From contig JAYKKM010000382.1 of the NCBI GenBank assembly GCA_035772405.1, positions 179,001 through 243,000 on the forward strand: a DNA stretch of 64,000 nucleotides. The letters are read 5' to 3'. A program made the translations under genes and the position numbers. The stretch comes from Chrysogorgia sp. JL179-B06 (taxonomy: Eukaryota > Cnidaria > Anthozoa > Scleralcyonacea > Chrysogorgiidae). Position 1 is the first letter of the stretch; every line of letters starts with the position of its first letter. The notes beneath the pieces were generated by a model that did not search any database, was not told where the DNA came from, and saw only the letters and a list, made by a program, of their open reading frames with translations. Below, one piece after another: positions 7,001 to 51,196 of the stretch.

Positions 7001-10000
7001 TTGTTGATGCAGTCTTTTCCACCTGTAGGCTCACTACTCTGCTAATCAATGGATTAACTATTTTCTCCACGCTGGACATTTAACTATTGAAGATTGTAAA
7101 ATGTCAAAATCTCTAAAGAACTTCATAACAATTAAGGTATGCAACGGTAGGACCTTAAAGTGTCTATAACATCATTTTATTGTCTTATTTGGAAGAACTT
7201 TTAAAATGATAAAGTAACTCCACTTAAAGATTTTTGCCTCATAGCTTGTTTTTTTATATATTTCAGTTTGTTTGATGTGCAAATGTCTGGAATTTCCTCA
7301 CACATATATAATGATTCACTGGAGATAATATTAAAATTTGATAATGAGATAATATTAATATTTTGATAATATTAAAATTCACTGGAAATAATTCACTATC
7401 ACTTTCATTCGCAAATGAAATCCTTTAAAATCAAGAAGTTTGGTGTTGTGGGAGAAACAAGCGCACAAGTTATTCATACTTTACTCTTTTCATTTCATAA
7501 AGGCAAAGACATATAACATTCTCTGATAAGTCATGATATGTGTGATGAAATTCCAGCCATTTGCATATCAAACAAATTGAAATAAACAAACAAAAATCTT
7601 CAAAAGAAGTTACTTTATCATTTTAAAAGTTCTTCCAAATAAAACAATAAAACATTTTCACGTTACAGGCACTTTAAAGGACATTGGCAACACAAATTAA
7701 GTTTGTCTAATATGAAAGAACTCGTAAAATGATAGAGTAACATCTTTTACAACTTTTCCGTATTTTACTTCGTTTTTGAAATATTTCAGTTTGTTTGATA
7801 TGTAAATGAGATGGTCTCTGACGTCAGGTGCAGGGTAGAGAATTTTCCCTCATTCAAATATTAGTTGAGATATAAGACATTTTTTAAAGAGTGTAAATTT
7901 TCTACCCTGCACCTGACGTCAGAGACCATCTCATTTACATATCAAACTGAAATATTTCAAAAATGAAGAAAAATACGTAAAAGTTGTAAAAGGTGTTACT
8001 CTATCATTTTACGTGTTCTTTAATATTAGACAAACTCAAATTTTGTTGCCAATGTCCTTTAAAGTTTTTAATAGAAATAGGCAACATTGGGTACAGCCAC
8101 CATCACCCCCTTTGCTACGCCCTGTGTAAACGGCATGGACCTTTGGTAACGCTATTTCATTTTTCTTTAACTTATTCAACAGGACGCTCTGACTAAGAAT
8201 TCAGCACGACAAATTCGCCTAGCATTTCTTTTACATTCCTGGAACTCCACACTCGATTACAGTGAGAATGTTCTTAAAGAAGCTGTTCAAGTTGAAAAGT
8301 TATTCAATGTATGGTTACAATTTGTTTTTAATAAAAAGGGAGCGCTCATTATTTATGGCTGAGTTAAATAAGTGTTTAACTCTTGCCTGTCCGGCCCAGT
8401 CAAAAGGGGTCATAGAAGACCCCCGAAGTCGTCAATCGAAAAACACGGCACACGGTAACGCAAGATTAAAAGTTGAAATTCGACAAGCGCCAGATTTGAT
8501 TTTATAAACAACTCTGCGATTGGTGGCATTTTGAATTTTCGTGATGCTACGCGGGCGTGCAAGATTTATGATAACATAATGTGTCTTGTTCGTAAAATTC
8601 AAAAGCGTTGGTAACAGCTGGTTTATTAGGCTTTCAGAAAAGGTATAGGTTTCGCAACAGTTATGGATATTTCCCGAGATATCAATAGAACAAAGAGGTA
8701 GTGCAGCCAGACAGGAGAGAGTTAATGTCTATAGTTATAATAATTGTGATACGATATAAAACATATATATTCCATGTTCAAAGAAATGGTCAGGTAAAAC
8801 CTCTTGTTAAATAATATTTTAAGACATATTTTCATGTTTATAAACAGTAACACAAACTTTAACTTCCTTAGAATATTGTAATGATCTCGTAGTATATGAA
8901 CCAGTATTTAATACTACAAATATCAGATAAATATCTAAAGTTATATGATAAGAGCAAGGACGAGACAGTAGGCAAAGGGCGTATATACATATATGATAAC
9001 ATGATTAAACGTACCCGGAAACCGGAGGAGGATTTGTGGAAGATCTTCACAAATAATTTCCCAACGTAACCAGGTGATAAATCAGACACAGTTTGACGCT
9101 ACTCTGGCTTAAAAAGGTTTTTTGAACGTAACTTTACAAGTTACTGTCCATGACCCAACGTTTCGACACTCCAATCTAGTGTCTTCGTCAGGGGTGATCG
9201 TTGTAAAGATAGGATCCCTATTTATACCGTCAGAGAACCGATGATGAAGTTATCTATTAACAAGATGCAAATAAGCTTCTGGTAATAACCACCGTCTTCG
9301 CGATTCGATTGGGCTTGGGCGCTATTGATATACCAAGCCTCCAGACAATGTCTCTGATGGTACCACAGATTAGTGACCATTACCAGGTTATTACCAGAAG
9401 CTTATTTGCATCTTGTTAATAGATAACGTCATCATCGGTTCTATGAGGGTATAAATAGGGATCCTAAACTTACAACGATCACCCATAATGAAGACACTAG
9501 ACTGGAGTATCGAAATGTTGGGTGCCAGAGTAGCGTCAAACTATGTCTGATCTTCACAAATCCTCGCAACATGTTATGGTGCACTGTATTAGTTTTTACT
9601 ACCATAATTACTGACGAAATATTATTTGTCTTGTTTGAAATCCTTTTGGGAATGATTACAGACTTATTAACCAAGTGTGAGGTCTGTACTGTTTAGTATT
9701 TGCCTGGTTTTCTTACAGACCGAGCGACGAAGGAGAGAGATTTGTGCGATAAAACCGAAGGAAAATACTTTCCAGTACAGACCGAGCAAATATGTGGCTT
9801 TTGATTAATTTAATTTTCTGTTTTAACGCTGCTTCGTCTTGAACTTCTTCAGATGCTGCCGTTACCTCTTCACTAATAGTAGTATGTTTCGCCTCATTTT
9901 GCATCAGTTAGGCATTTATTTTCTGTGCTTTTAGATGATTGAAAACTTTAAAGAAAAGCGATAGTGATGTTCCAGCACATTTTATTTCTCGGTATTTTCA

Positions 10001-13000: not shown

Positions 13001-16000
13001 CATATAGACAGATGCCCGCTATGACATCATTTCCGTCAACTTTAACAGCAAAAAAGTCTATGAAGATGAAATTTTCAGCTGACAAGATATATTACAATTT
13101 ATCTCAGGAGAATCCATAGATTACAAATATGTTAAATCCCCACAGACGATATAGGCACTTTAATCGCGTTTGAGTTATATATGATCGAAAGTCGTATCTT
13201 TCTTTATGCGCCGAAGTTTAGAGAAAGATCGCTAACCGAACTGTTCGGGATCATGAGTCACAATGCGCAAAGTGATCACAGGTTTATTGCGGTATCCTTG
13301 CGCACGCTTGCAGCGTGCGGGGCCCAGAAAGCGCAGGGCCCGCGGCATGTGCCGCCTGTCATAGAGTTAATCCGGCCCTGATTGTGTGTAGATGTTTCCT
13401 AATGATTGATTTTCCACATGTTTCAAATGATTGATTTTCCTGAACATAGTGATGATTATTTTCCTTTTTCTAACAATTACAACATTAAGAGTACAGTGAT
13501 CTTTTAGTGTATCAAAATTCTGGGGAACGAAAAGAAAGATAAACCCACACTTTCACGAAATCACTTGAAAAAGTTACAAATAGTCTTTAGTGTCGATGCC
13601 CGAGTCAGATCACAGAGCCTTAGCCAAACTCAAGGTTTTTATTTCAAGCACATAACATCTTGTTGATATATAATGTTCTCTCACATGCATCTCATCACTA
13701 TCAAATATTCAATAAAAACACCTCAATCACAGTTTCCAACACACTCCGCCATGTTCTTTCAGTAATGAAATACATGTAAATGAAATTGTGGTTACAAAAA
13801 TGTATGTACTATCATAACAGAACAAAGAAATTTAAAGTTTGTTAAGTTATTAATTGTTTCTCAGTTCTGGAAGTCTTCAGCGATTTCTTGGATGCATTGC
13901 CGAAGATATTCTCTGCGTCAAGTTTTAGTTGATGGGCTTCTGACACTGTGGTCGTCGACATAAAGACTGCGAAGGATCTCTGCAACGGTCACTGAAAGTC
14001 GGTCGCACCAACTCTTCAGATATCGCTTGATGACTCCCTCCAGCAGAATAGGGGAAGAGGCCAGCCCAAACAGTACACAGGTGAATCTCAGACTTTGGAC
14101 TTCGGACGAGTTCACGTCGCACGATCTTTCTGTAATACCTGTAATACCGCACGATATTTCTGTAGATCTTTCAATACGATCTTTCTGTATATATCCCCCG
14201 CTAGGGCGATCATGTGGAATCGGGCTAAGACGTCCCACAACTTGTTCTGATGAACCAGTCTTGGATTCATGCAGTCGTTGAGAGACGGTTCCCATTCGCT
14301 GCTCGGGCGAAACAGGCGTATACCACCCGTATAATCTGGTGCTCTCGGCCCGTTCCTTGATCCCGGATCGGTGTGGCATGCAGAATTCTCTTCCAACAGC
14401 TTATTGTGGCGCAAGTTCAACCACCACCAGCTTGCAGGACAGCTTGCTCTCGCAGGTGAAACATAGCTTCTTTCCATAAGAATATGATCCTTGCGCTCGG
14501 TTGGGGAAGACACTTAATTATCGCAGTTGTACGGCCGATGTTCGCTGCTATCACAATAAACACGCTTGGTTGGTTCGTGGGAACACTTCGCAACGTCGCT
14601 GATTTTACTAAGAAACTGAATGTTCATAACTTTCATGCACCGCACGATCCTATGATAAACACCGCTGGTCATACGTACTAGGTGTTCCAAAAATCATCGT
14701 GAAATTTTGGCATACACAGCACACAGGAAACCCGACACAGGAAGATTAGCGTTGCTGCTTAGCAGCAATAATATTTTTAGCAGGGTAAACACTTCTTAAA
14801 CCTGTTAATAAAACTGCTATTAATGTACAGGCGAGGCTCTTTTACAGTAAATTTTGAAGCCGTAACTACAGTATGAAACCACTGCGAGGTATAATCTCGT
14901 CAACATTGTGGTATTTCTTGTCTTTCAAATTTTTCTTCAAATTTGTTTTGTTTAGCTTTCATGAAAAAAAGTCCCAGGTTCATAATGCTTTGTGTGGTAA
15001 GTATTTTCAATTCTGTTATCTTATTAAAGAAAGTATCTTAATTCGAGTATTATTGTAGCTAAGTTCAAAGTTCAAAGTTATCCAATGAAAATACTCGAAA
15101 CGTTGCACGTGGATACCACCAAACTAAAGAACATGGTTCAAGTTAAATGTTGTCACCATAGTAACAGCATCCAAACCTCTCCGTTCCCATACAGAAGTCT
15201 TCATTTCCCGCCATTGCAACCAACGTTTTCGATTTCAAAGTTGAGTATTACATTGGAAAAGTTATTCAAAAAGTTATTGAGAACTGCCAATGAGTGAAAA
15301 TAAATTATTTTGTTTTAGACACTAGGAGGCATTGAAACTAATCTGTTACTATGGTGATAACATAACTTGAACCATGTTTCTTTAGTATACATGCACGTGC
15401 AAAGTTTCAAGTGATTTGATTGGATAAGTTTGAAGATATACACGAATTTTAGAATTGCCACAATGTTGTTTGCCTACTTTGACGTCAACCTCGTTCCCAG
15501 GGCCTTATCTCCGCTCCCCCCGGTGGCTGGCGGGGAGCGGATGTAAGGCCTTGGGAACGAAGTTGCTTTGACGTCATCATATGTCATTAATATATCACAT
15601 TCAACTGAATACCTCGAGGACGAAAATAGATATCGACGAACTGCCAACGCCATTCTTCATCATTTGAAGTGTCCTTTCAAACAATACATTATCATTTTGG
15701 GGGTTATAGTGGCACTTTAAAGTGCATATATCACGAACACCATTTTTTTTCTAAAAATCAACCGTAATGAGACGATTCGAATGATATATAATCATACTTG
15801 CACCAAATAAAAAATTTCAGAGATATTTTGCATCAAAAAGCCGAAAAATAAATATGGCCGGGAAAAAAAAGTCTGAGTTCTAATAAGGCTTGTGACGTCA
15901 AATCGGGAACGGAAGTGTTTTTGACTGGTGTTATTTTACTTGTTTTTATCGAAGCAAGTGTTCACAAGTGTAGAAAAATGCCTTCGCGATGCGTTGTATT

Positions 16001-19000
16001 CGGGTGTTCAAACACTCCAGACCTTGAAGAAGGTATAGCACTACACAGGTTACCTTATGCTGACGATCTTAGACCAGTAGCAGTAGAAAGACGCCGGCAT
16101 TGGATAAAGTTTGTGAAGCGCAAACGCGTAAAGTGGGAGCCTTCTAACAGCAGTTGCGTGTGTTCGAAGCAGGACATGAAAAAACTATCCCGTGGCTTAA
16201 AAAAGACGATATAGGCGTAATTGCGTATCCATCCGTATGCGATGAGGAAGATGAAGAACTTTCGGGCAGAGCGATACGACGCAAGGTGAGAAAATATCAT
16301 GCATATTAAACCACTATTATTACCTTACTGCGTAAAAATTGACTATGTAACAATAAACATACATCCACTGAAAGCAGCCTGGTGTATATAATTTATAACA
16401 TTGTTACAGTATATGTTCTTTTAATTTTAGAATCTACTCTATATGAAAAAGTAAAGAAGACTTTGACTAACAAAAGATTAGTGAATGGAATCAAGAAGGC
16501 ATCTCCCTTGAACCAAACAAGCATCCTTGAGGGATTTCATTCCGTTTTAAATAATTTTTCCCCAAAGATGCTTGCTTACTCATACACTCATTGGAATGTA
16601 TGTCAGGTAATGAATTATAGATCTTTTCTTGAATTTGTTCACTACAGTGTTATTGTGTTATGATATTGTGTCATGCTGTCTGTACGTAATGATAAAATAA
16701 TTTGCAACAAATAAAGAAATATGTTTTGTGATTCATATATTTTTCAGACATACATGTATACTAGCTGTTATACATTTTAATGACAATATTAACCGAGGTC
16801 AAAAAAATTCATTGGATGGCTCAGAACAGGTGTCTGTGATTTATCCCAAATTTGAGAATGGGGAAGCCACTGTCAGAAGTGTGAAAGTTAAACTAAATTT
16901 TGGTAAGTAAAAATAGTCTCATTAACAAATATTATTTTACGCATTAAAATCATTTTGATTGCCAAAAAAGAGTATTAATAGGGTTGTAAATGACCTCTGC
17001 ATCAACAATATTTACAAATATGCCTAATATTTGAAAAAAACAACACTTATCAAGGGAATTCTTATGAATTGATACGTGTAAAATCATTATGTATTATAAC
17101 ATTTGATAATTGTAGTGTTTTATTTGTTGTATTTGGTATTTTATTGATTTTAAGGTTACATTCAAGACATTTATTTGACATTCCTTGATGCTCAGAAGAA
17201 AAACCTTCTGGAAAATGAGGCCAAAATATTAAAAGAGATGACACCTGAACCCATGCCATGAACACCATGTTAACCAAACAACCAAAGGATGAAGCAATTA
17301 AAAAAAGAAAAGAAAGAAAACTCATGGTTGTGGAAGAGGTTCCCCAACAACACCTGGTAAAGTTTCTAATAGTTTCTATTTCAAAATCAGTTAATTTCTT
17401 TTAATAATATCACCCCCCAAAAAGTAGTCCCAAGCAAAACTACTTAAATTACATTAAAAAGATAAGTTAACAAATGTAATGCCAAGTGACAAGTTTGGTA
17501 ATTACTGAAATATTTTAACAGACTTCAATCTTTTTGTCATTTTAAAGTATCTCAAGTTCAAGACAATGACATACCACAAAGAACAAAAGCAAAGCCTCAC
17601 TGTACAGTGTGTCACAATCCAATGAAGGGGCACAAATATATACTAAATTGTCCAAGGAACAACAAAAACAACTAATTGAATGTAATATTTAACCAATGTT
17701 ATTTAATAGATAATTAGAGGCCAGTTCAGTGTTATTAAATACATTGCAGTCAGTTATTTGTAGCCCGAAGCTGAATGCAATATATTTAATGTCGTCTGGC
17801 CGAAGTGATTATCTGTTATAATTACTAACCCATGTCAAATCCCATAGTTCACTACTTCACTTTCTGCATTATATCACGATTTCATCCACCATTCTCTGAC
17901 ACCTATTTAATAGATAATTTGACTGAGGCCAACAGCATTATTAAATGTATTGCAGTAAGCAATAAACCGTCCCCATTTTCCTGAGATATTTTGAATAATA
18001 ACCGCCATTGGACTAAAATCGTTGATATAATGCAGACAGAGAACAATGGGATTTGATATGGGTTAGTAATCATATATAATTATTCTGTTTATTCATCATC
18101 TTCAAAACCTTTAAACTCATCCCCATTTGTTATGAACGTTGTTCGAATTGCATAATAGACACATGCTGGCAATGGAATTCTCACTTTACCCAAAGTTCCA
18201 TAAACAAGTTGTGTAAACTCTCTGTATGCTATTGATCTTAAGAACCTAAAAACGTTTGTAAGTTTGTGTTACAGAACTATTATTAAATATTAAAGTGCAA
18301 GCAAGGGACCAACATGGTTTCTCAAAGTTCAGGAATCAGGATTTGAGTGAAAAACATTGATTCAATACTTTATAATAATAAATTATCTTTCTACTTACGC
18401 CTCCTCTGAACCACTTTGGCGATATCTTCGACGATCTTTCGTCTTGTATTTCGAGGCTGATGGTCTTAACGACCATTTTTCTAAACGATTTACACGAAAT
18501 TCTGGATGATGTGTTATACACGAAGGAGGAGTTTCGACATCTTGGAGAACTTCGTCAGATTGCAATGCTTCAATGCATTTTTCAATGTCTTGACAGCACT
18601 GAGCTTCGTATACGTTCTGTAGCATACTTGCAGCATACTTAGGTTACAATTTTTACATTTACACCTAAAATAAAACAGGAAATAACACAATCATTTACAT
18701 GACAGGTCAGAATATATAAGAGGTGAAGGTGTAGAATTGTACAGAGAATCGGCTGAAACACGAAAAAACTTACCAAAGTGTTACAGAAACTTTCCCGTCT
18801 AACCTTTCCTGGAGTGCATCAACACGAATAGCCTCAAGCTCTTGTTTGTTTTTATAATTTTGAACCAAGGCACGACAGCAGAGTTTTCCCCACGTGTGTT
18901 GTCTGAAGGTGAGTCTTCTTCTTCGATTTCTTGCTCGTAATCGTACATTTGGCTCACGTCCGAATTCTCAGATGTTGAACTATCGGATCCAGAAGTAGAC

Positions 19001-22000
19001 ATTGCCCCAAAACACAGAATTTTGCACAGCCTTTCTCAAAGGAAAACAATAAGAATTTGTGCGACAAAATTACTTCCGTTCCCGATTTGACGTCACAAGC
19101 TTTATTCGAACTCAGACTCTTTTTTCCCGGCCATATATTCAAAAACAGTATTTTTGGCATGTTCGGTGCAAAATATCCCTGAAATTTTTTATTTGGTGCA
19201 AGTATGATTATATATCATTCGAATCGTCTCATTACGATTGATTTTTAGAAAAAAAATGGTGTTCGTGATATATGCACTTTAAACAATAGCTATTGCCTGA
19301 AAAACTGAAATTTCTATTTTCAAATCTACTTTCTTGTTTTAAAGACTCTGTGGATACTCCAACGGCGTTACTTCACATGCAAGCGTTGGTTAAACAAACT
19401 AATATTTATGTCGCCTTGAAGAAACAGGCAAACCAATCATCCAACCACAAGCTCCTGGAGAATATTGCAAAGTACATAACTGATATGCTACGGGTATGTC
19501 TTTATAAGTAGTTGAACCTTTGTGCATTAAACAACGTTAAAGGGGAACTGTATACCCCAAAAATATATTACTTTGATGATGACGTTATCTATTAACAAGA
19601 GCAAATAAGCTTCTGGTAATAAACCACCATCATCGCGATTCAATGGGGCGTGGGCGCTATTGATCAGCCGCGGATTAGTGGTAATAATTTTGGAATTTTC
19701 CCACGCAATCTCATGGTAGGTTACGCACGCGCGCTTCGACAAAGCCGAATTTTCCTTTTTTGAAAAGAAAACAGCCTTTTGGTGAAAACGCGTATGAAAC
19801 TTATTGAAGTGTCGAAACGTTGGGTCATGGACAGTCAGTTTGGAAACGTTTAATGTGTTTTATCATTAAAATAATACTTTTCTTTCCTTGTATCGATCGA
19901 CACTTGATGATTTTTTTTAAATTTTCGTTCGAAGTGCTCTTTCACTGATGGTAGTGCCATGTGTTTGCCAACGTGTTCCACTATAGTTGAGCAGGATATG
20001 AAACTATAGCCTGGTTTCCGTGTAGCCTTTCGTATCGCACATTGTGCGTTCGAAGACAACATGCGATATATATAATAAGATATATATATAACTGATATTA
20101 TAAAAACATGTTTTGCCGACTAACTTTTTGATGACTCCCCCTTGCACCTTGTATTATTTCTGGGTAATTTTCGAAAGCACCCCCTCAACCTACTGTTGAA
20201 AAATCATGACCCTCCTCAAAATCACCACAGTGCTCCCCCCTCTAGATAAATTCTGAACCCTCCCTAATCTGATTGATTTAGATTTTTGGCGCCAACGAAG
20301 GTCAACAGTCTATTGGGTTCCAGACCTCTAGTTCCTCGGTCTCTCATAATCACGAAGACATTGCGTTGCCTTACGTGGAGCTTCTTGCTGACTTCCGAGA
20401 GCAAGTTAGAAATATTGCCAGGCAAGAAAAAGTTGGCAAAATACTAAACCTTTGTGATGATTTAAGAGACGAAGGTTTACCTAACCTCGGAGTCAGGTTA
20501 GAAGATCAAGAGGGTGAGTAGAATGTATAAATAACCAAGATCTTTATAATCTACAGGGAAGCTTCACCATATGCACTTATATATGTATTTCATATAAGGT
20601 CATATAGGAAGATCATGGGAAGAGCAAATACATTGCCCTGATGAGTACAGTTTGGATACCCCATTTAACGGTTAGCCGATGGGGCCTGCTGGATCGGCCC
20701 ACTCCGGCACCCTGCGGTGAAATTCATTCTTTTTGGTCATCATCGTTCGCAGCTGAATTCTGTCCAGTCCATTTTCCCACTTTGTGCCAGCGACCTTTCA
20801 TGTTTTTTCTTTGGTCTTAGCGAAAAGCATCTGCTTCTGTGGCATGTAATTCTCCATTCTAACCACGTGACCCAGTCGTTTGAGCGTCTGTGCTCAGTCA
20901 AACGTGTCCAAGCGACCAGCTTTTGTGATCATATATACATCGTTAATATACACAATCGATACATGGACGATCGTCAAGCTTGTATCCTCAGAAAAATGGA
21001 CAGGAATCGAACCTGCAACCTTCTGATTGCCGGTGAGACGCTCTAACCATTGAGCCACCGAGACTCAGATGGAGAGCGAAGGTTACAATTATTTCGATTG
21101 ATATATGTACTGCCTATGCGGCAGTCACTATACAGCTTGGATGTGTTAATATATACAATGTTGTAGTGAATGCGAGAGAACTCTGAGTAGACAGACGATA
21201 CGTAGACGATCATCAAGCTCGTATCCTCAGAAAAATGATTCTGAGTCTCGGTGGCTCAATGGTTAGAGCGTCTCACCGGCAATCAGAAGGTTACAGGTTC
21301 GATTCCTGTCCGGGACTCAGAATCATTTTTCTGAGGATACGAGCTTGACGATCGTCCATGTATCGTCTGTCTACTCCAAACTCTCCCACATTCACTACAG
21401 CAATGTATATATTAATACAATATACACAATGTTGTAGTGAATGTGGGAGAGCTCTGAGTAGACAGACGATACGTGTTACAGGTTCGATTCCTGTACGGGG
21501 CTCAGAGTCATTTTTCTGAGGATATGAGCTTGACGATCGTCCACGTATCGTCTTTGGTAAAATTTTGATCGTAGTGGCACTTTAACAACATTTCCTTGTC
21601 ACCGGGCCATTTTAAACTTCTTTTTTTTTTGCCTAAGTCGATGTTTTTTTCTTAACTTGTTACAGAAAACCAATCATCTGTTATAAAATTTGTTGATCGA
21701 GACACGCTTTTAAAAGAAAAACAGCAACAACTTGAGGTAACTTATGCCATGTTTTTTGAATATTTTGAAATTATCAATGCGCTTATGCTCCTGAAACCTC
21801 AGAGCAGTTCTAAGTAGAGGTAAAATGAGTACGTGTTGTCGCTCATTTACTTCCGGTTATGCTGAGCACACCAGTTTCTAGTTTAACACTTGAAAATTAT
21901 TTTTTTAGGAAATAGAAACGAAGAAACGAGAAAAAGAAGAAGCTAAGATGAAACAAGAAAAAGAAAAGGTTTGTGTTTGTTTGAAAATAGCGACCTTAAA

Positions 22001-25600: not shown

Positions 25601-28600
25601 GTGACATAATGATATGAACTGCTGTACAAATAGTGACTCCCAGTTTGATTTAACTTGTGTGGTTATTAGGTGGTTATTGAGGGGTTAGTGTGTGTTTATT
25701 GAGTGTTTATTTGGTGGTAATTGGATGGTTAAATCCTTTTAAACTTTAGCTACTGAGTTAAACCGGTTGTATATAAAAGTGTAGTTGGCGTTAAGTGATA
25801 GATAAAATATGAGCGTCCGATTTTTATATGATATACAAACTCGAGCCGAAGACGAGCGTTTGTATATCAGATAAAGATCGACGCGAATATTTTATATGGT
25901 TTATCAAATAAATACACATATATATGTTCATATCTATCTACTATCTTGAAGATACAAGCTGTTTTAGCTGAGGAAATCGAAGGAAAAGTTTATCAGGATG
26001 AATCTTTATCCGATTTAAAACCTCCGTCGTGCCAGTGATTTCCTTTTTTCTTCTTTTTGAATTATTAATGAATGTGATAACTGTTGTTGTGAAATTCATT
26101 AATAATTCATGAAGAAAATTCAAAAAGAAATTAATATTTAATCAATATCTGTAAATTCGGATACAACATTCATTAATAAAAAATCAATGCTTTATAGAAA
26201 CTAATAATTAATTAATTAATTAAATAAATGAAGATAATTCAAAATAAATAAATATTTAATCAGCATCTTTAACACAGGATAAAACTTACTCAAAATGGGC
26301 TTTTTCGGAGTTAAAATAATTTATTTGTACCGTTTATACAACTTCCAAACAAAGTATTTATATATTCTATTCATTTTACAAGTCCGTTAAAACATTCGCG
26401 GTCGATGTTTACTGGCAGTTACAACGGCTTGCCATTGTAACTGCCCATGCACAAACATCGGCCGCTCATGTTTTAACTACTTCTTAAAACATAGTTAACA
26501 ATGGTCTCGGGGTATCGTTAACTTTCCAAAATATAATAAATAATGGCGGTTTTTTTGGACAATTTTACCACGAACAACTAAAGCAACAACAGAACCGCTT
26601 TCCGAGAGTTTTCAACCAGTATGTTAATTTGGTAATAGCTGTTCGATGTAGAGCTCCGTAAGAGATACAGGTTTGGCATGAGAGAGTCAATCGTTTATTT
26701 CGCAAAACTTTGAATCCTGGCTATTAAACCAATGATTCAATTTCTGCATGCTCTTCGCTTTTATGCATTGGGAAGTTTTGTGCAAGTGATAAGCGAAACG
26801 TTTGTGAATATATTCTGAATGTCAAAAGCAAAGATGGTCAAGACTATATGGAATAAATAGCAAAGTGAAAAGGTAGTAAACTGCCAAGATTTTTAATAAT
26901 GAAATACTGACATTTCGAGTGGAGACCTTCATCTTGATCTGATGAAGATCTTACTCTGATGGTCTTACTCTGATGGTCTTACTCTGATGGTCTTACTCTG
27001 ATGGTCTTACTCTGATGGTCTTACTCTGATGGTCTTACTCTGATGGTCTTACTCTGATGGTCTTACTCTGATGGTCTTACTCTGATGATCTTACTCTGAT
27101 GGTCTTACTCTGATGGTCTTACTCTGATGGTCTTACTCTGATGGTCTTACTCTGATGGTCTTACTCTGATGGTCTTACTCTGATGGTCTTACTCTGATGG
27201 TCTGATGGTCTTACTCTGATGGTCTTACTCTGATGGTCTTACTCTGATGGTCTTACTCTGATGGTCTTACTCTGATGGTCTTACTCTGATGGTCTTACTC
27301 TGATGGTCTTACTATGATGGTCTTACTCTGATGGTCTTACTCTGATGATGGTCTTACTCTGATGGTCTTACTCTGATGGTCTTACTCTGATGGTCTTACT
27401 CTGATGGTCTTACTCTGATGGTCTTACTCTGATGGTCTTACTCTGATGGTCTTACTCTGGTGGTCTTACTCTGGTGGTCTTACTCTGATGGTCTTACTCT
27501 GATGGTCTTACTCTGATGGTCTTACTCTGATGGTCTTACTCTGATGGTCTTACTGTGATGGTCTTACTCTGATGAAGGTCTTACTCTGATGGTCTTACTC
27601 TGATGGTCTTACTCTGATGGTCTTACTCTGATGGTCTTACTCTGATGGTCTTACTCTGATGGTCTTACTCTGATGGTCTTACTCTGATGAAGGTCTTACT
27701 CTGATGAAGGTCTTACTCTGATGAAGGTCTTACTCTCATGAAGGTCTTACTCTGATGAACGGCTCCGCTCGAAATGTCAGTATTTCGTTACTAAAAATCT
27801 TGGCAGTTTACTGCCAAACTGCCTTTTCACTTTGCTATATATTCAAAACGCAGCACTACTTTTTAATATATGGAATCTCTCTTTGTTTGTCACATCACTG
27901 CCTAAAGTTAACCTTTTCGAAAAAGGTTCAAAAAAATATTACGGCAAAATTTCAAAGTATTTCACGCACCCCAGTGTTTAATTATCGTAGCACAAAATAT
28001 TAAAACTGTTGCTCAAATCGCAAACTTTGCATATACAAACGACATGTTTAGAATAGTTATAAATATGACATTATATATACTAGTCGTTAAAGGTCGTATA
28101 TATAACATCGGGGAATTTAACATATTTGTAATCTATGGATTCTCCTGAGAAAAATTGTAATATATCTTGTCAGCCGAAAATTTCATCTTCATATACTTTT
28201 TTGCTGTTAAAGTTGACGGAAGTGATGTCATAGCGGGTATCTCTAAACAGGTTTTCATGTAGACAGATACCCGCTATGACATCGCTTCCGTCAACTTTAA
28301 CAGCAAAAAAGTCTATGAAGATGACATTTTCGGCTGACAAGATATATTACAATTTTTCTCAGGAGAATCCATAGATTACAAATATGTTAAATTCCCACAG
28401 ATGTTATACGACCTTTAACGTAGGAGGTAGTTAACCACAATAATTACCACAAAAATTGGCGAGAAGCATGAAGTAGTCATGACATAACAAATCAACTCTT
28501 GGTTGAAGAGAGATGCTTCAGGAACCATGGAACCTGGCAGAATGACTTGGTTGGCACAAATGCTAGAGCATTTCATAGTTAGTAGAAGGGATGGTTTGGA

Positions 28601-37664: not shown

Positions 37665-38310
37665 TTACTAATTTTATTTTATTACAAGATGACATGGCTT
37701 GAGTAATTCTAGAGATGGATGGAATGAAATGTATTACATGATGCGAATACGGGTTAAATTTTATACAAATGTGGAAATAACTCATCGTGTACCAGTTACA
37801 TGATGGGAATATGGATTTAAATGTTAGGTAAACGTAGATAAGAATATAATATTATAATTTATCGAGGAAATTAATGACATATTTTTGACAATGATAATTT
37901 GGATGGATTTTTAATGCTTTGCAGAAAAGAGCTTACCTTACGTTATCCATTGACGTGAGAGTTATTTTTGTTATTTTGTAAGCATTGGTAGCGTGGCCGA
38001 TTTGTCTAAGGTGCTGGTTTAAAGCACCAGTCAATTCGATGGCGTGGGTTCGAATCTCACCGCTGCCATTGCTCATTTTATTTTATTGACATTACCGTAA
38101 ATTATTTTTCTTAATTAATTCTAGAGATGGTCAGGAATGAAATGTATTACATGATGCGAATACGGGTTTAAATTTTATATAAGCGTAGAAAGAACTCACC
38201 GTGTACCAATTACATGATGGGAATAAGGATTTAAATGTTAGGTAAACGCAGAAAAAACTCGCACTAAAGCATAGCAATGTCACGAGAACTATAGCGGATA
38301 AAGTATTACA
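37665..38310 (+). repeat. Tandem ~330-bp unit carrying tRNA-Leu
   Basis: After each tRNA-Leu 3' end the same tail follows: AATTCTAGAGATGG, GAATGAAATGTATTACATGA, TGCGAATACGGGTT, TTACATGATGGGAAT, AAATGTTAGGTAAACG. Two full units and the start of a third. Confidence 0.75.
37987..38068 (+). tRNA. tRNA-Leu-like gene, altered anticodon loop
   Basis: Acceptor GGTAGCG/CGCTGCC, long variable arm, T arm with GGTTCGAAT: class II tRNA-Leu layout. The anticodon stem CTGGT/ACCAG encloses TTAAAGC, placing AAA at 34-36 where tRNA-Leu would carry AAG, and the D loop has lost its GG. It is probably a decaying copy. Confidence 0.6.
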
Positions 38311-40207: not shown

Positions 40208-43200
40208 TTACTCACTTTCCGAGTCAATATCGCCAACATGCTCGTACTCCTCAACGTTTCCTTCCATTATATATGCAGTAAATAATGCCAGAATGACAGT
40301 GGTAGCAATAGAGTTATAAAACAGAGTTTGTTTTGCTCCAATTAAATTGAAAAATAATCCCATAGCTGTACCGCCGACTCCAAGTCCAAAGGCAAAAGAC
40401 AACTCTGTCAGTCCTTATAAAATAAAAAAGAAAGAGATCAGAAACAATCAAGACAATGCTGTATTCCATTTACAACTGAATAAAAAGTGATTTCGTTTCT
40501 TTTTTCTTCCTGAATTATTGATATCATATATGATACATATTATCAAAATCGCGGTGGCCATCTTGGAGAAACCATCTGCTCTCTGTAGTTTCTGTCAAAG
40601 AGGAGTGGTAATTTGTATGCTAAAGAACACGAAAGCCTTCCACCTGCACTGATTCATTTTGGCATATTGATAAAAAAAAACAAATATTCGCTGTCGGCTA
40701 TAGTAAAACTATTTATAGAATAACATGTATGCTACGCAGGCTCTGATTGGTCAATACCTGTGTTTGGATCAGACCATACAAACACGGAAATTTCCCACTA
40801 AAAATGTCCTTAAGTTTTGCTACTCGTTCTTTCGTATTATTTTATAAAATAAATAGCTGATGGTTTTCCCGTGTTTGGATTCTGTGATCCAAGCACTGGG
40901 AAGTTGCTCGTCTTTCGAAAAACTAAAAAAACACTCGCCTAGCGACTCGTGTTTCTCTACGCTTTTCTCCAGTCTCGCAACTTCCCGCGTCTTTGAATCA
41001 CAGTATCCAAACACGGAAACCATTTCTTTAATAGCTATTCTGTTTCCGTCCTTTACAGAGACGCCGAGCCTTCTTGAACTTCTTCTTTGTCTTTGTCTTC
41101 GTCTGGATAATTGAACTCGTTTTCCGAATGTTCACTATATTTGTTAGCTTCGCTTAATTTTCAGATCTCGAGCCTTCGGGTCTCTGTATAGTAAAGAACG
41201 GAATCCGAAACGACCGAAACCGGTGATCGAAACGACCGAAATCGCCGAAATATGCATTGACAAATCTCGTTTATGTCACGCTTATTTGTCACGATTCATT
41301 GGCACTGCTCGTTGTAATATTTTAAATTTCCAAATATATATTTATACACATTTGTACTATTTAACAATTAGACAACAAGAACGAGTTGTATATTGTCTAT
41401 AGTGATTCATTATGGCATATTAATAAAAAAAGACAAATATTCTGTGTCGGCTATAGTAAAATTATATTCCGTGGTCGCAACAAGTGGTTCCGAAGGTCAT
41501 CTCTCCAATATGGCGGTCGTGACCAACTTCCAGCTTCAATTTCAGAACAATAGATGTTCTAACTAGTTTCTTATGCAGGTTATAGAGGTATTATAGTAAT
41601 ATAGTCTTCAACCTCGTCAATCATCAACACAGTGCGCACGCTCAGGACTAAATTAATCCCGCAAGCGTTATGTCTTACGTCCGCGGAAAATTTTTTTGGA
41701 TCACTTTCCATGGGAAGCCATCACCCGATGGAAATTACTTTTATCCTATCCCGAACCTCTCATCTTTACCCTAACCCCAGCCTAGCACTGGGTTTCAAGT
41801 ATACCCAATTTATAGGCCAACGTGAGAGAGAATGCTTGTGGGCTGCACATGCGCAGTCAAGGTCCCCAAAAAAGTGATCCCAAAAAATCACCCATTCCGC
41901 ACGTTTTATAAACCAATACATTATTGGCATTATTTTAGCATTGTAACCAATACGTTATTGGATTGCAATACGTCACTAGTCTATTAATTTAGGACCCGGG
42001 TGTGGGTTAGGGACGGAGAAAATACGGCCGGGAAGTTCAGGTTAGAAAACTCGCTAGCCCGGGGAGTTAGGACCTTTGTTGTTTTTGGGTTGGTTACAAT
42101 CCAATAACTAATAATTGGTTACAATGCTAAAATAATGCCAATAATTTATTGATTACAACGTTCGGAAAGGCTGCAAAAAATAATTTTGCCTTACGTTAAC
42201 CTATAAGTTCAAACAATATCATCTATGTGACAAACCCACATCGCAGATTTAGTTCTAACCCTAACCCCCCGCCTAGAGTTCAATCCTAACCCCCCGCCTA
42301 GAAACTATAGATTAACCAAAAACATAACGTTTGTGTGATTAATTTAGTCCTGCTCATGCGCACTCTGTGGTTGATTTGCGTGGTTGAAGACTATATTTCG
42401 CCCACTATAATACCTCGATTATACGTTGGTATATGATTGATTATTTTTGTTTGCACTCGATATTTTTTGTATTTCCTCTACCATGCAAAAGCATTGACCA
42501 ATTTCTCAAATATCGAAAGCATCAATAATTTTTATTTCCTTACCTAATACTACAGCAGAAGAGGCCTTTGATCCGGTTTTTGAAAAATGGACGTTTACCG
42601 CTGAATACGAAAAAGCATATGCTGCCGGATGGAAAAAATCGATAACCAAGATTACCCAGGGTAGTTGAAGAAACGACAAAGAAATCTCGCAAACTGCGAA
42701 GATAAATAGGGCTATCGCCATGGTTCGAAGATCACCAAGTCTGTTTATAAGCTTTCCTGCCGAAAGAAACCAGATTACTGCAAGAGGTCGACGAATTAAG
42801 CCTGCAACCGCCATGACTTTCGGGCTTCCAGAAAGCGTAGCGATGTACCAAAACTCCCAGTAATATTGAAATGAATAACAGCAGCCAACATAAAAAATAA
42901 TGAACAGAATGAACATATAGTGTCTGCTAAATACGACACTTTTCACTTCGGCCCAGTTGATTACACGATGTTCGAGATATTCAAAATAGATCCATGGGAG
43001 AGCAACGAGCGACAAACTCGTAGTAATTGCTACGATTGGAAACGCTACGAAGTATCCATATATGACTTTACCACAAACTGTGTTCTTTACGTACGAGGCG
43101 ATCATGCCGACGGCAAACAAAGATATACAACTTCCAATTTGTCCCCAACCAAAGTACGAACCGTATTTCGCTCTCTCTTTCTTGAGGTGAGTCATGACAG

Positions 43201-43810
43201 CGACGTTATACAGCGATATAGTGGATATATTCAGGATGAGGTATAGCCCTCTAATCAAAACCATCAGCAGAAATACGAATGAATAACTCGAGACATATGC
43301 TTTCCGTTTCAATGGGTTCCATGTTCGGTTCACGAGGAAAGACTGATTACCTGAGACTGAGATGACTGAATGCTCTTCTGTTAATTTCAAACTTGGAGTA
43401 TTCTTGTATGTTTTGATTGACCTGAAATCGGAGATATTTTTAACCCACAAGGTTGTGTTCAAGAAGTTGTTGGTGTCAATATTTAAATAATCACTTTGTG
43501 TTGTATCACAGGTGCCGTGTATGATCTTGGGCAGCATTGTAAGAGGCACCAACGACAGCAGAATAAGTACAAGAAGGCATACAAATAAAACCAATTTTCT
43601 TGCTCGATATCGATCAGCTAAAACTCCAATGAGAGGTACAAATATAACATGCGCTCCGCCGAGAGTTGTGAACCCGATTTGTTTTGCAGTGAAGCCTAAT
43701 TGCTTCAGGTACAATGCATAATATTCCTGAAAGGTCACCAAACTTGACAAAAGGAAGAAAATAATCCATCTCAACGCAACGGTTTTCAACGACCACGAGA
43801 ACGATACCAT
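40208..43810 (-). CDS. MFSD6-like major facilitator superfamily transporter (two exons)
   Basis: Multi-pass plasma- or organelle-membrane transporter of unknown substrate. Exon 1 (43810-42544) encodes about 422 residues: start MVSFSWSLKTVALRWIIFFL, a motif-A-like loop GVLADRYRARK between TM2 and TM3, a large loop (about residues 100-165) with several N-x-S/T sites, then further TM helices including YGSYFGWGQIGSCISLFAVG and SAGKLINRLGDLRTMAIALF. It joins in phase (donor GTAAGG) to exon 2 (40413-40208), which supplies GLTELSFAFGLGVGGTAMGL, the last TM helices and an acidic tail ending DIDSESE. Combined length (about 490 aa) is shorter than vertebrate MFSD6. The intron (2.1 kb) holds foldbacks. 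Terminal-exon copies recur upstream at 45.6, 51.8 and 62.7 kb. Assignment to the MFSD6/MFS_1-like group is by motif recognition. Confidence 0.85.
40867..41016. repeat. Foldback (CGTGTTTGGAT arms), original locus
   Basis: CCCGTGTTTGGATTCTGTGA... at 40867 and ...TCACAGTATCCAAACACGG at 41016 form about 40-bp arms. The same foldback is carried in blocks E1 (46209-46360), E2 (52400-52551) and E3 (63304-63422, with an internal deletion). Confidence 0.75.
41587..42417. mobile_element. MITE with ~75-bp arms, containing a nested foldback
   Basis: Ends GAGGTATTATAGT and ACTATAATACCTC, inner arms ATATAGTCTTCAACC/GGTTG AAGACTATAT. A second inverted pair (TGGCATTATTTTAGCATTGT and ACAATGCTAAAATAATGCCA) lies inside at about 41930 and 42120. 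In the MFS intron. Confidence 0.7.
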
Positions 43811-44151
43811 GTCAGGTTTATATCAAAGATACCTTGTTATGCCGAAATTTGCGGTGTAATTGCTTTCCAACGAAAGAATGTTTGTTTCAGATTTGCATAA
43901 ATATCTTGTCACAACTGAATGCGTAGCTAACGACGCGGGGTGACTGGAAATTTGTTAAACGACAACGAAAAATCTATATAATATCTCTGCTATATTGGTG
44001 CGAGATATTTTTCCATATCAAAAACTTAATATTGAGACATCTGATCACTTCTTGTTTCATGATGCAAAATAGCAACTTCAGGTCATTAAAAGCATATTAA
44101 TTGTTGGCATACACTATTAAGTTACGGAAATAATATTATAAGTGATTGCAT

Positions 44152-44481: not shown

Positions 44482-44558
44482 CGGCTTCCGTAGCTCAGTG
44501 GTCAGAGCACTGCACTAGCATCGCAGGGGTGCGGGGGTTCAATTCCAGCCGGAAGGCC
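44482..44558 (+). pseudogene. tRNA-Ala-like sequence (AGC)
   Basis: CTTCCG/CGGAAG acceptor core, D arm GCTC/GAGC, anticodon loop CTAGCAT giving AGC, and a B-box-like GGTTCAATTCC. The T stem is poorly paired (GCGGG against CCAGC). More likely a tRNA-derived repeat than a working tRNA. Confidence 0.55.
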
Positions 44559-44639: not shown

Positions 44640-44950
44640 AACTCTTAAAATGTATGTATTCCAACACTCGAAATTTTCCTTCACCATAAATCCTTAGAAT
44701 ATATAAATCCTTAGAATATATAAATCCTTAGAATATATAAATCCTTAGAATCCTTAGAATATATAAAAATATAAAATCCTTAGAATATAAATCCTTAGAA
44801 TATATAAATCCTTAGAATATATAAATGCTTAGAATATAAATCCTCAGAATATATAAATCCTTAGAATATATAACAATCCTTAGAATATAAAATTAGAAAA
44901 TATATAAATCCTTAGAATATATAAATCCTTAGAATATATATATATATATA
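44640..44950. repeat. AT-rich minisatellite (CCTTAGAATATATAAAT)n
   Basis: About 15 imperfect 16-18-bp units ending in an (AT)n run. Short forms of the same array begin blocks E2 (51073-51140) and E3 (61975-62045). Confidence 0.85.
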
Positions 44951-45005
44951 TATATATAGTAAGAACAAAAGAGACGAACTTTGGTTACTTCATTTAAACT
45001 TTATT

Positions 45006-45066
45006 TCACTACAGATCTGTTTCGTATGGAAAGCTATATTAGCTTACCACACTCATCAGGTGAGTA
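45006..45066 (-). ncRNA. Hammerhead ribozyme candidate, block E1
   Basis: Read on the - strand: helix I TCAC, core CTGATGA, an extended helix II of 13 pairs (GTGTGG-TAAGCTA against TAGCTTT-CCATAC, one mismatch), GAAA, helix III CAGATCTG, UA, then GTGA closing helix I. Every conserved position is present; the strongest single hammerhead in the window together with its E2 and E3 copies. Confidence 0.8.
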
Positions 45067-45554
45067 TTGCGACTGGTGTTACAAAGCGGAAACTTGATAT
45101 TGTATTGATATTGTATTGATATTGAAACTTGATATTGTATTTTATATATATATATATATATTATAAAAAGAAAGACAAAAAGACAAACTTGATTACTCAT
45201 TTGAATTTTAAATTAATATATTCGTAGTGGAATGACAGGTTAATCCATATTGATTCGTAAAGTGCTCATCAATAAAGGAGCGTGGGAAGCCTCGCATGTC
45301 GATTTGACCCACGAGAAACGTCATATGGACGTTTCTCTGGAGAACCCCACCCCCCTTAGGAACGTCATACATAGTTATCGAAATGTTATTGTGTATATAA
45401 ACACTGCAAAACTACCGTTAAAGCCTAACGTCTTCAAAGAGTACTTTCTACTCTTTAAAAAAAACTGTCCAGGATTGGCACTTTAAAAAGTACGGTTTTT
45501 TTCCCTTCTAAGAACCTCTGTCGTTCAGCATTATTAAAGACGATAAAACATTGA

Positions 45555-45760
45555 TTACTCACTTTCCGAGTCAATATCGCCAACATGCTCGTACTCGTCA
45601 ACGTTTCCTGCCATTATATATGAAGTAAATAATGCAAGAATGACAGTGGTAGCGATAGAGTTATAAAACAGAGTTTGTTTTGCTCCAATTAAATTGAAAA
45701 ATAATCCCATAGCTGTACCGCCGACTCCAAGTCCAAAGGCAAAAGACAACTCGGTCAGTC
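45555..45760 (-). pseudogene. Orphan copy of MFS terminal exon (E1)
   Basis: Same acceptor (CTTATAAG) and open frame as 40208-40413. Differences from the original are few: the TM end reads TSYIMAGNVDEY instead of TAYIMEGNVEEY. No matching first exon is seen within the window upstream on this strand. Confidence 0.8.
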
Positions 45761-46715
45761 CTTATAAAATAAAAAAGAAAGAGATCAGAAACAATCAAGA
45801 CAATGCTGTTCCAATTTACAACTGAATAAAAAGTGATTTCGTTTCTTTTTTCTTTCTGAATTATTGATATCATATATGATACATATTATCAAAATCGCGT
45901 TGGCCATCTTGGAGAAACCATCTGCTCTCTGTAGTTTCTGTCAAAGAGGAGTGGTAATTTGTATGCTAAAGAACACGAAAGCCTTCTACCACTGATTCAT
46001 TTTGGCATATTAATAAAAAAGAAAAATATTCGCTGTCGGCTCTAGTAAAACTATTTATAAAATAACATGTATGCTACGCAGGCTCTGATTGGTCAATACC
46101 TGTGTTTGGATCAGACCATACAAACACGGAAATTTCCCACTAAAAATGTCCTTAAGTTTTGCTACTCGTTCTTTCGTATTATTTTCATAAACGAAATAGC
46201 TGATGGTTTTCCCGTGTTTGGATTCTGTGATCCAAGCACTGGGAAGTTGCTCGTCTTTCGAAAAACTAAAAAATCACTCGCCTAGCGACTCGTGTTTCTC
46301 TACGCTTTTCTCCAGTCTCGCAACTTCCCGCGTGTTTGAATCACAGTATCCAAACACGGAAACCATTTCTTTAATAACTATTCTGTTTCCGTCCTTTACA
46401 GATACGCCGAGCCTTCTTGAACTTATTCTTTGTCTTTGTCTTCGTCTGGATAATAGAACTCGTTTTCCGAATGCTCACTATATTTGTTAGCTTCGCTTAA
46501 TTTTCAGATCTCCTCGAGCCTTCGGGTCTCTGTATAGTAAAGAACGGAATCCGAAACGACCGAAACCGGTGATCGAAACGACCGAAATCGCCGAAATATG
46601 CATTGACAAATCTCGTTTATGTCACGCTTATTTGTCACGATTCATTGGCACTGCTCGTTGTAATATTTTAAAATTCCAAATATATATTTATACACATTTG
46701 TACTAATTTAACAAA

Positions 46716-46803
46716 TAGACAACGAGAACGAGTTGTCTATGAGCAGATAGGGCGAAGCCCGAGTTGACTATCTGCTCATAGACAACGAGGGCGAGTTGTC
46801 TAA
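46716..46803. repeat. Palindrome in block E1
   Basis: TAGACAACGAGAACGAGTTG and the GAGCAGATAG/CTATCTGCTC pair fold around GGGCGAAGCCC. Copies at 52907-52994 (E2) and 63778-63865 (E3). Confidence 0.8.
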
Positions 46804-47516
46804 TTGTTTTAGTATCAACCATAAACAACCTTTCTAACATTTTTCCAAATTTTCAGATAGTTTTACCTTTTTGTTTGTAGTAGTCTCAACATTCAAAATG
46901 TAGAGTTGCTGATGACACATGATAAACAATCGCTCACAAAAAACGAGATTGTAATTACTTTGATTCACATTTGGTATAGATATACTCCATAGGCAAAAGC
47001 GAATTCATTTTCTTATTCGAAAATGTCAAAACTGAACAATTTTCCATTACTTTCGGGCCAATGTTTTCATGATTTCGTCACTCGTATATAAATTTTAGCG
47101 GACGCTATATGTTTGGACTAGATTCCAGGTTTGGCCGTGAAGCTTGAATATGTCGTGGCTTCTGATTGGTCAGGATAGGAATATTCCAGCATAAGAAGGT
47201 TTGTGATTGGGTAACGCTACTCGCCGTCTATCACCAATAGACAGTGAGTAGCTCAGTCAATCATAATGCCGAATTTGTTTTTTGGTTTTGGAGTAGGTAA
47301 TGGGAACCACAATGATGTCCTCAGTCCTGTATATGTAAATGTAGAAAACTATGGGGACGGGGATTGTAACAATAAGCGCATTTAGCCACTGACTATAATA
47401 CGTATCATATTGCAACGCGCGCTGGACATGCAGTGTAAACTGAATAAAAGGTATGAATAAAATACAGAAACAGAGAGTAAAGATGCGTATAATTGTATAG
47501 TGCATAGCATAACATG

Positions 47517-47573
47517 CGGGATAACCCTGTACGCATTTCGACCTTTATTGGTCTCTTCAGCAGGGTATCGGGT
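47517..47573 (-). ncRNA. Hammerhead ribozyme candidate, block R1
   Basis: - strand: helix I CCCTG, core CTGAAGA, helix II GACC/GGTC with AATAAA loop, GAAA, TGC, GTA, then CAGGG closing helix I (extended by GATA/TATC beyond one bulged T). Core complete. Helix III is minimal. Confidence 0.75.
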
Positions 47574-47965
47574 TGGCAGTTGATGTTTTTAAGTTGGAAG
47601 ATAAATAATAATGCGCGGAGTAAACAAAATATGCGTGTAACTGTAAGGAAAGAAAATTTAAGTGATTGCTTACCAAAGTGTTGTTTGTTAGGGAAAGTCC
47701 AACGCGTCGTGCCATGAGTGTAGGGTTGAAAGGCTGTCGTAGTTAAAAGGTTCGTTCTCGATCGTTGTACTAGCTTGGGCTTCGTCAAATACAAATTGTC
47801 ACTGAGGGCGTTTATCAGTTGGTAAAACAGTATATACGTGAGTTGCGTCATTAGTTACCAGGTCGGTTGGTGTTTCATGTATCGGTCACCACATGAGGTA
47901 CATAGTCTTCCTTATTGTCCTGATTATCCCCACCTTCCCCGCTACGGGCCATCTACATCAACTTT

Positions 47966-51072: not shown

Positions 51073-51196
51073 AATATACAAATCCTTAGAATATATAAAT
51101 CCTTAGAATATATAAATCCTTAGAATATATATATATATATATATATATAGTAAGAACAAAAGAGACGAACTTTGGTTACTTCATTTAAACTTTATT

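What the first reader, a model, noticed from the sequence alone, without database searches (positions are those of the whole stretch)
15721..19278. A Kolobok-type transposon carries a P2X7 C-terminal (ballast) domain gene
A TTAA/TIR element encloses a THAP gene and, convergently, a three-exon gene with the Cys-rich P2X7 tail signature (CKCKNC, CCQD, AYREF, LPACVYYAIR, FKGF) and no channel part. If this is the element's own second gene, the cytoplasmic domain of vertebrate P2X7 could descend from a transposon protein. The link to Kolobok is established for THAP plus TTAA; the domain identity is motif recognition; the evolutionary reading is inference.
Basis: partly seen in the sequence, partly recalled or inferred. 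Interest (0 to 1): 0.88.

Follow-up and report, generated by a model that had tools for sequence, protein, structure and literature searches.

The report
Transposon gene behind P2X7's tail domain
A decayed jumping gene (a Kolobok-type DNA transposon) in this animal's genome carries a gene for the same protein domain that forms the inner tail of the vertebrate P2X7 receptor, all ten other copies found with both ends unchanged carry it too, and the receptor's tail therefore likely came from such a transposon, as a 2022 paper already proposed.

Summary
Window 15721-19278 is a TTAA-flanked element with long inverted repeats, a THAP/transposase remnant and, convergently, a three-exon P2X7-type ballast gene. 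This copy is dead: the exons with the two catalytic Asp are missing and the ballast gene has two frame breaks, one an 11-bp duplication seen in 8 copies. It is no passenger. But the core idea is published: Kojima & Bao 2022 (PMC9587614) call this protein KolX and propose P2X7 = P2X4-like channel + KolX. What the calls add: at least 150 P2RX7_C places in this genome, 96 within 8 kb of a Kolobok-like core, all 96 convergent (0.6 expected); a second TTAA/TIR family enclosing ballast genes; purifying selection (dN/dS about 0.07); and classes B-D, which resemble P2X7 more than the window's class A does. Transposon proteins lie on both sides of P2X7 in the tree; its exact sister is unresolved. How the ballast protein helps transposition is inferred. 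Verdict: new member of a known kind, with a strong test of a published claim.

The parts
15717..15720 (.). Left TTAA target-site duplication
   Evidence: Sequence; TTAA on both sides in 10 of 11 copies with exact ends, the 11th (L018) reads TAAA on its left
15721..15923 (+). Left terminal inverted repeat, starts 5'-AG
   Evidence: 89.7% identical to 19065-19278 inverted
15978..16214 (+). Transposase exon 1: THAP domain, frame broken where the HF of C2CH is expected; the exon continues in another frame (FEAGHEKTIPWLKKDDIGVIAYPSV) to about 16290
   Evidence: PF05485 8e-7; sibling L010 has the unbroken form, 1.4e-11
16433..16606 (+). Transposase C-terminal exon with the region of the last catalytic Glu (NQTSILEGFHSVLNNFSPK, motif reading); the exons with both Asp motifs, present in L010/L014/L023, are missing upstream of it
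   Evidence: Comparison with L010, L014, L023
16776..16904 (+). Further transposase C-terminal piece
   Evidence: tblastn
17154..17261 (+). Likely last transposase piece (GYIQDIYLTFLDAQKK...)
   Evidence: Open frame shared with L010 and L014
17817..18074 (.). Imperfect inverted repeat between the two gene ends
   Evidence: pairs I3 and I5
18089..18245 (-). KolX/ballast exon 3 (FLRSIAYREF...IPLPACVYYAIR...FKGFEDDE), holds the 7th Zn cysteine
   Evidence: splice AG read at 18247-18246
18399..18664 (-). KolX/ballast exon 2 (CKCKNC...CCQD...CITHH), broken by an 11-bp tandem duplication; holds six Zn cysteines
18774..19002 (-). KolX exon 1 (MSTSGSD..., acidic N-terminus), frame broken inside
19065..19278 (-). 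Right terminal inverted repeat
19279..19282 (.). Right TTAA target-site duplication

Best explanation
The feature is a decayed copy of a Kolobok-type DNA transposon (TTAA target site, long inverted repeats, THAP transposase) whose second gene, facing the transposase tail to tail, encodes KolX, a cysteine-rich protein of the P2X7 'ballast' family that likely serves transposition as an accessory factor. The window copy belongs to a deletion subfamily that has lost the exons with both catalytic Asp motifs and carries a broken KolX, so its spread would have depended on proteins supplied in trans by fuller relatives such as L010, L014 and L023. The ballast domain is under purifying selection in related elements of the same genome (dN/dS about 0.07 in class B), so it is predicted to do a job for the element. 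My committed, untested mechanism (which alone I put at about 0.3): KolX would sit in the transposition complex, held by a two-zinc core as in P2X7, and bind a guanine nucleotide and/or the element ends, as the almost entirely helical GTP-binding domain does inside P-element transposase. A vertebrate P2X4-like channel gene likely later acquired one such gene as its last exon, giving P2X7. The confidence below is for identity and ownership of the gene.
Confidence: 0.88

Rival explanations
1. The ballast gene is a one-off passenger: a host gene caught between the TIRs of this single copy.
For: Only that this copy has a broken ballast gene and that some Kolobok lineages encode only a transposase (PMC9587614 section 10).
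Against: All 11 copies with exact ends carry it, at 11 different places and each time convergent with the transposase remnant; the second TIR family carries it too.
Confidence: 0.02
2. Reverse direction: the transposons captured the domain from a host gene (a P2X7-, nanor- or ZCD-type gene), and P2X7 is not derived from a transposon.
For: The trees are unrooted and the P2X7 branch is long (about 2 changes per column); neither placing P2X7 outside classes B-D (p-AU 0.40) nor joining it with class A (p-AU 0.169) is rejected.
Against: Either of those placements still leaves transposon-encoded classes on two sides of P2X7 (A on one, B-D on the other; the A branch has 100/95 and 100/100). By Rump et al. 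no typical P2X7 was found in agnathans or cartilaginous fish, while the ballast domain is found from sponges on (PMC7016195). P2X7 is nearer to class B (35.0% mean identity) than class B is to the window's class A of the same genome (26.7%).
Confidence: 0.09
3. KolX is the element's own gene but acts outside the transposition complex, for example against host silencing or in regulating transposase expression.
For: Non-autonomous copies with broken KolX amplified (8 copies with the 11-bp duplication), so KolX is not needed in cis; nothing here shows physical contact with transposase.
Against: Convergent pairing with the transposase across divergent classes (96 of 96) suggests a tight functional link, but does not say which.
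Confidence: 0.3
4. The ballast genes are ordinary host genes with conserved neighbours, as the 'ancestral synteny' of Rump et al. 2020 reads.
For: Rump et al. report two markers linked to ballast (ZCD) genes from sponge to molluscs, arthropods and echinoderms (PMC7016195 section 11).
Against: Here the conserved neighbour is a transposase, the pairs are dispersed over many contigs, often in near-identical copies, and two families lie between TTAA-flanked repeats. The published markers may themselves be transposon genes (inference; their identities were not read).
Confidence: 0.03

Closest known systems
Kol0 lineage of Kolobok DNA transposons with KolX (Kolobok-1_XT type; Kojima & Bao 2022, PMC9587614)
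   Same: Two proteins, a DDE transposase and KolX; TTAA duplications; 5'-RR...YY-3' ends; KolX similar to P2X7 residues 476-595 with seven conserved Cys; cnidarian hosts reported
   Different: A family in an unnamed octocoral-like genome; the window copy is a dead deletion derivative; three-exon KolX. Whether this transposase falls inside the Kol0 clade was not tested
P2X7 C-terminal cytoplasmic ballast domain (PF20478, P2RX7_C)
   Same: Seven Zn cysteines, W before the first Cys, the AYR and LP/PSC...IR motifs, R546 and R578 equivalents
   Different: No channel; an acidic N-terminus in class A, a CXC-like module upstream of many class B genes; H547 equivalent absent in class A but present in classes B and C
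Nanor / ZCD proteins of metazoans (Rump et al. 2020, PMC7016195)
   Same: Short proteins ending in the ballast domain, no transmembrane part
   Different: Described as host genes with fewer than ten per species; here at least 150 places in one genome, 96 of them beside a listed Kolobok-like core
KolobokP / KolobokD / KolobokE (other Kolobok lineages with an accessory gene)
   Same: Kolobok transposase plus one accessory gene; in KolobokP the accessory gene lies on the complementary strand
   Different: Accessory gene is a nuclease there, a ballast protein here; no long terminal direct repeats in the window element

Membership tests
Kolobok superfamily | TTAA target-site duplication | tested here: met
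   TTAA on both sides in 10 of 11 copies with exact ends, TAAA on one side of the 11th
Kolobok superfamily | Termini 5'-RR ... YY-3' (not piggyBac-like) | tested here: met
   AG...CT in 11 of 11 (the copies were picked by exact ends, so this is one family trait, not 11 tests); criterion from PMC9587614 section 3
Kolobok superfamily | DDE catalytic core with C/DxxH signature | tested here: met
   Present in sibling copies L010, L014, L023 by motif reading; the window copy itself lacks both Asp-bearing exons
Kolobok superfamily | THAP DNA-binding domain in the transposase | tested here: met
   PF05485 8e-7 in the window, 1.4e-11 in L010; trait listed in PMC6004289 (passage)
Kolobok superfamily | H2CH zinc finger between second Asp and Glu | not tested
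   Not examined residue by residue
Kol0 lineage | Encodes KolX with P2X7-like ballast domain | tested here: met
Kol0 lineage | Transposase falls in the Kol0 clade of the DDE tree | not tested
   No named Kolobok transposases were fetched
P2RX7_C / ballast domain family | Profile score above curated cut-off | tested here: met
   27.6 vs 23.5 bits for the read-through; four proteins of classes B-D 94-132 bits
P2RX7_C / ballast domain family | Seven Zn-coordinating cysteines | tested here: met
   Invariant in the 6-sequence alignment with rat P2X7; seen by eye in the window exons. In the 49 genome ORFs the picking pattern already required six, and the seventh is present in 49 of 49
P2RX7_C / ballast domain family | Guanine-nucleotide site (R546, H547, R574, R578, K583) | tested here: inconclusive
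   R546 and R578 equivalents invariant; H547 equivalent in 38 of 49 B-D ORFs (absent in class D), absent from class A; nucleotide binding itself not testable here
P2X receptor | ATP-gated channel domain (PF00864) | tested here: not met
   No such match in the element's reading frames scanned
KolobokP | Long terminal direct repeats of about 450 or 660 bp | tested here: not met
   No direct repeat over 37 nt reported in 15500-19500

The most novel reading that the evidence does not exclude
The cytoplasmic tail of vertebrate P2X7 is a captured subunit of a transposition machine, and specifically of the CXC/ballast Kolobok lineage (classes B-D here) rather than of the KolX type in the window; its guanine-nucleotide and zinc sites, whose role in P2X7 is unexplained, are relics of a protein that positioned transposon ends, doing in trans what the built-in GTP-binding domain does in P-element transposase.
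Probability: 0.22. Interest if true: 0.82.

Novelty: new member of a known kind. Interest (0 to 1): 0.5.

Why it matters
The zinc and GTP/GDP sites of the P2X7 ballast are called of unknown significance in the abstract start of PMC9859053 (search listing only), and P2X7 is pursued as a drug target (abstract start of PMC12436592, same listing). If the domain is a former transposon protein, its biochemistry should be sought in DNA transposition, which can be tested with a transposon that still carries it. This genome supplies a rich natural series: four ballast classes, many with open frames, class B under purifying selection, and 96 of 150 listed places paired with a transposase core. It also suggests that the 'ancestral synteny' reported for ballast genes across animals may be the two-gene structure of a transposon (inference).

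Tried and rejected
Passenger and host-gene readings: rejected. piggyBac (also TTAA): rejected by the AG...CT ends and the THAP/DDE of siblings. Viral and GTDB collections gave no relative of KolX; phage records gave no match to the element. The single-sequence PDB search found nothing; the profile found P2X7 only weakly. P2X7 joined with the frog protein alone is disfavoured (p-AU 0.035). The position of P2X7 inside or beside B-D is unresolved (p-AU 0.40; joining it with class A p-AU 0.169). Rows dropped: 4 of 53 loci had no full ORF by the picking pattern (L046, L048, L069, L073); rows with identical domains were entered once (42 of 49); P2X7 rows are 7 of those listed. My text-based classifier left one class-B row (L047) as '?'. 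Scripts printed their results and then stopped with an error; therefore gives no class D value (no usable pair). The selection test covers the ballast domain only and is biased towards intact, high-scoring ORFs. TIRs were sought in L054, L059, L080 and L081 by a short-TIR script and not found, the far ends lying outside the fetched stretches in at least L080 and L081; ends came from comparing two copies. Copies with one mismatch in the end sequence were not fetched: that looser pattern gave 57 + 65 sites against 17 + 14 in the reversed control. Whether the lists overlap was not computed.

Literature: searches. Seen: PMC9587614 abstract, outline, sections 3 and 10, passages around sections 12 and 16; PMC7016195 sections 11 and 14 and passages; PMC6004289 and PMC7776569 passages; PMC9859053 and PMC12436592 search listing only. 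No second paper making the Kolobok-ballast link was seen in the listings of searches; one search also lists PMC9319628 with one mention of each word, which I did not read. The name CXC-like, the name hAT and the DDE motif reading are recalled, not from a call.
Full report
What is there. Window 15721-19278 is bounded by perfect inverted copies of AGTGCATATATCACG next to TTAA on both sides. The inverted repeats run 203 and 214 bp at 89.7% identity, the outer part nearly perfect. Exon 3 alone matches P2RX7_C below the curated cut-off (1.6e-3); the read-through of the three exons passes it (3.3e-6, 27.6 vs 23.5 bits). The closest proteins are from octocorals (Dendronephthya 54%, Paramuricea 50%), so the source is likely an octocoral or near kin; it is not named.

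State of this copy. It is dead. The exons with the two catalytic Asp motifs, which siblings L010, L014 and L023 keep, are absent, while the region of the last Glu (TSILEGFHSVL) remains (motif reading). The ballast gene is frame-broken in exon 1 and, by an 11-bp tandem duplication, in exon 2. That duplication is present in 8 of the 16 loci examined (the window copy, L009, L012, L013, L015, L016, L017, L020); the two-ended ones among them are 97.5-99.5% identical to the window copy. The four other two-ended copies (L010, L011, L014, L018), whose exon 2 reads on without it, are 94.7-96.2% identical. So a deletion subfamily spread after losing its own proteins, presumably helped in trans (inference).

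The genome (781 Mb, 522 contigs) holds 27 exact matches to the 15-base end, which form 11 inverted pairs and 5 single ends. All 10 other paired copies carry KolX pieces together with THAP and transposase pieces, convergently as in the window. Of the 5 single ends, 3 carry KolX (L019, L020, and L023 at a contig end), 1 has only THAP and transposase pieces in the 7.3 kb fetched (L021) and 1 has neither (L022). TTAA flanks both ends in 10 of 11; L018 reads TAAA on one side. Copies with a mismatch in the end were not examined. The passenger reading is refuted.

Beyond the window. A P2RX7_C search of the same genome scored 150 of 821 candidates; all 150 passed the cut-off, best E 2.9e-37, and 0 of 14 control genomes rang. 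Most of the 150 matches have no stop inside. Reading 53 loci gave 49 full ORFs, falling into three classes besides the window's class A: B (NLV..L.RLALELLRRQPA, then the ballast), C (YVFTP, MRHAAYRQYVMWQHG) and D (CPSCVV). The pattern used to pick the ORFs already demanded six of the seven cysteines; the seventh is there in 49 of 49, the RH pair equivalent to R546-H547 in 38 (not in class D) and the R578 equivalent in 48. Upstream of the ballast, on the same strand, 14 of 36 loci have an exon for a CXC-like Cys-rich module (typically MDESFTLDDIEQ... then C.CRG.CLRE.GRN.C.CK); three places are in that count twice (L027/L054, L031/L055, L040/L056), so it is 13 of 33 distinct places, all 13 of class B. 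Flanks were often only 1.5 kb, and splicing to the ballast exon is not shown.

Carriers. Two Kolobok-like transposase cores found beside such genes (in L059 and L054) were searched in the genome (135 of 775 and 138 of 809 candidates scored). Of the 150 ballast places 96 lie within 8 kb of a core (1.4-7.2 kb, median 2.4 kb), and in 96 of 96 the two genes are convergent; 0.63 pairs are expected by chance, and 96 of 195 distinct core places have a listed ballast nearby. For the other 54 no core was listed, at least partly because of the scoring caps. These cores hit no Pfam family; I call them Kolobok-like from the motif GDG..DSPG..AK, from their mutual similarity (L054 to L059, 31%, E 6e-35) and from their similarity to the window family's transposase: its first-Asp exon matches L058, L054, L057 and L059 at 8e-14, 5e-11, 1e-9 and 9e-5, and the exon before it at 8e-8 to 3e-5 (composition correction off; with the default correction the two pairs tried gave 5e-4 and 0.081). 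Comparing two class D copies gave ends TTAA+AGGAGCTATGTCACC. With up to one mismatch the genome has 41 such sites and 0 in the reversed control; they form 14 inverted pairs, of which 10 enclose a listed ballast, 8 a listed core and 7 both. For classes B and C the element ends were not determined. Separately, the class A exon-2 search scored 150 of 808 candidates, all matching; overlap with the first list was not computed.

Selection. Over the ballast domain of class B ORFs, 30 pairs with usable synonymous divergence give median dN/dS 0.07 (maximum 0.425; all 30 below 1; 323 pairs saturated), and three class C pairs 0.087. The sample is biased to intact high-scoring ORFs, but this is hard to explain unless the elements need the protein.

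Evolution. In a 68-row tree of the domain one branch (100/95) separates class A, its database relatives, the frog and the Montipora protein from classes B, C, D and P2X7; without the two long single rows the branch to class A and its relatives has 100/100. Mean identity is P2X7-B 35.0%, P2X7-A 27.0%, B-A 26.7%. The exact sister of P2X7 is open: holding B-D together without P2X7 costs 0.97 log-likelihood units (p-AU 0.40), and joining P2X7 with class A is not rejected (p-AU 0.169). Only mammalian P2X7 rows were used, the P2X7 branch is long, the columns are few (119) and the tree is unrooted. What stands is that transposon-encoded proteins lie on two sides of P2X7.

Known or new. Kojima & Bao 2022 (PMC9587614; passages) report that KolX of the Kol0 Kolobok lineage is similar to P2X7 476-595 with seven Cys, note cnidarian hosts, and conclude that P2X7 arose by fusion of a P2X4-like gene with KolX. 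Rump et al. 2020 (PMC7016195) had described the domain across Metazoa without the word transposon in the main text ('transpos' 0 occurrences), with fewer than ten genes per species and a conserved two-marker linkage. The core of this finding is therefore a new member of a known kind. The scale, the convergent rule, the second TIR family, the selection and the P2X7-like classes B-D were not seen in the passages I read, but I did not read either paper whole, nor their supplements.

How it works. Shown: domain, partnership, convergence, conservation. Inferred: KolX helps transposition. [quoted passage not shown] P2X7's ballast is reported to hold GTP/GDP and zinc sites (PMC9859053 listing). No call tests the proposal; class A lacks the H547 equivalent, which speaks against nucleotide binding in the window's class.

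Setting. The element lies in a gene with a cysteinyl-tRNA synthetase signature: a KMSKS exon at 7029-7163 matches tRNA-synt_1e (1.5e-10), and an exon starting about 65 bp right of the element matches DALR_2 only weakly (0.14) and no PDB chain. The identity of the second exon is partly recalled.

Noticed in passing
window 7029-7163 and 19347-19493 (+): Exons of a likely cysteinyl-tRNA synthetase gene; the transposon sits in its intron, about 65 bp before a 3' splice site (tRNA-synt_1e 1.5e-10; DALR_2 0.14).
   Followed up: partly
window 40110-64000: Large recent tandem duplication: blocks of 4.7-5.2 kb at about 99.6% identity (47275-52459 = 58176-63364; 44880-49550 = 51069-55741).
   Followed up: partly
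window 26931-27759: Short-period tandem array of about 0.8 kb (several offsets differ by 14 bp).
   Followed up: no
window 42506-43822 (-): 438-aa open frame that looks like a multi-pass membrane transporter beside the tandem duplication (by eye).
   Followed up: no
window 20998-21059, 21245-21317, 37987-38068, 44484-44557: Four tRNA matches, one on the minus strand.
   Followed up: no
G000:C422:594307-750473: Six listed ballast ORFs on the same strand within 156 kb, each with one TGA; the one read (L060) is class B: an array rather than dispersed copies.
   Followed up: no
G000:C47:1429235-1432609 and C315:132128-135497: Short (3.37 kb) TTAA/TIR elements with an open ballast ORF but no listed transposase core: the ballast gene seems kept while the transposase is lost.
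   Followed up: partly
L016 1586-3274 (-): A copy of the focal element with a second transposon inside it; its ORF looks hAT-like (recalled motif).
   Followed up: no
L055 2656-3027, L056 969-1373 (+) and 11 other places: CXC-like Cys-rich module exon upstream of class B ballasts, possibly their DNA-binding N-terminus.
   Followed up: partly
protein P0033 (Exaiptasia, 415 aa): A ballast protein with a long extra C-terminal region containing a C2H2-like stretch (by eye).
   Followed up: no
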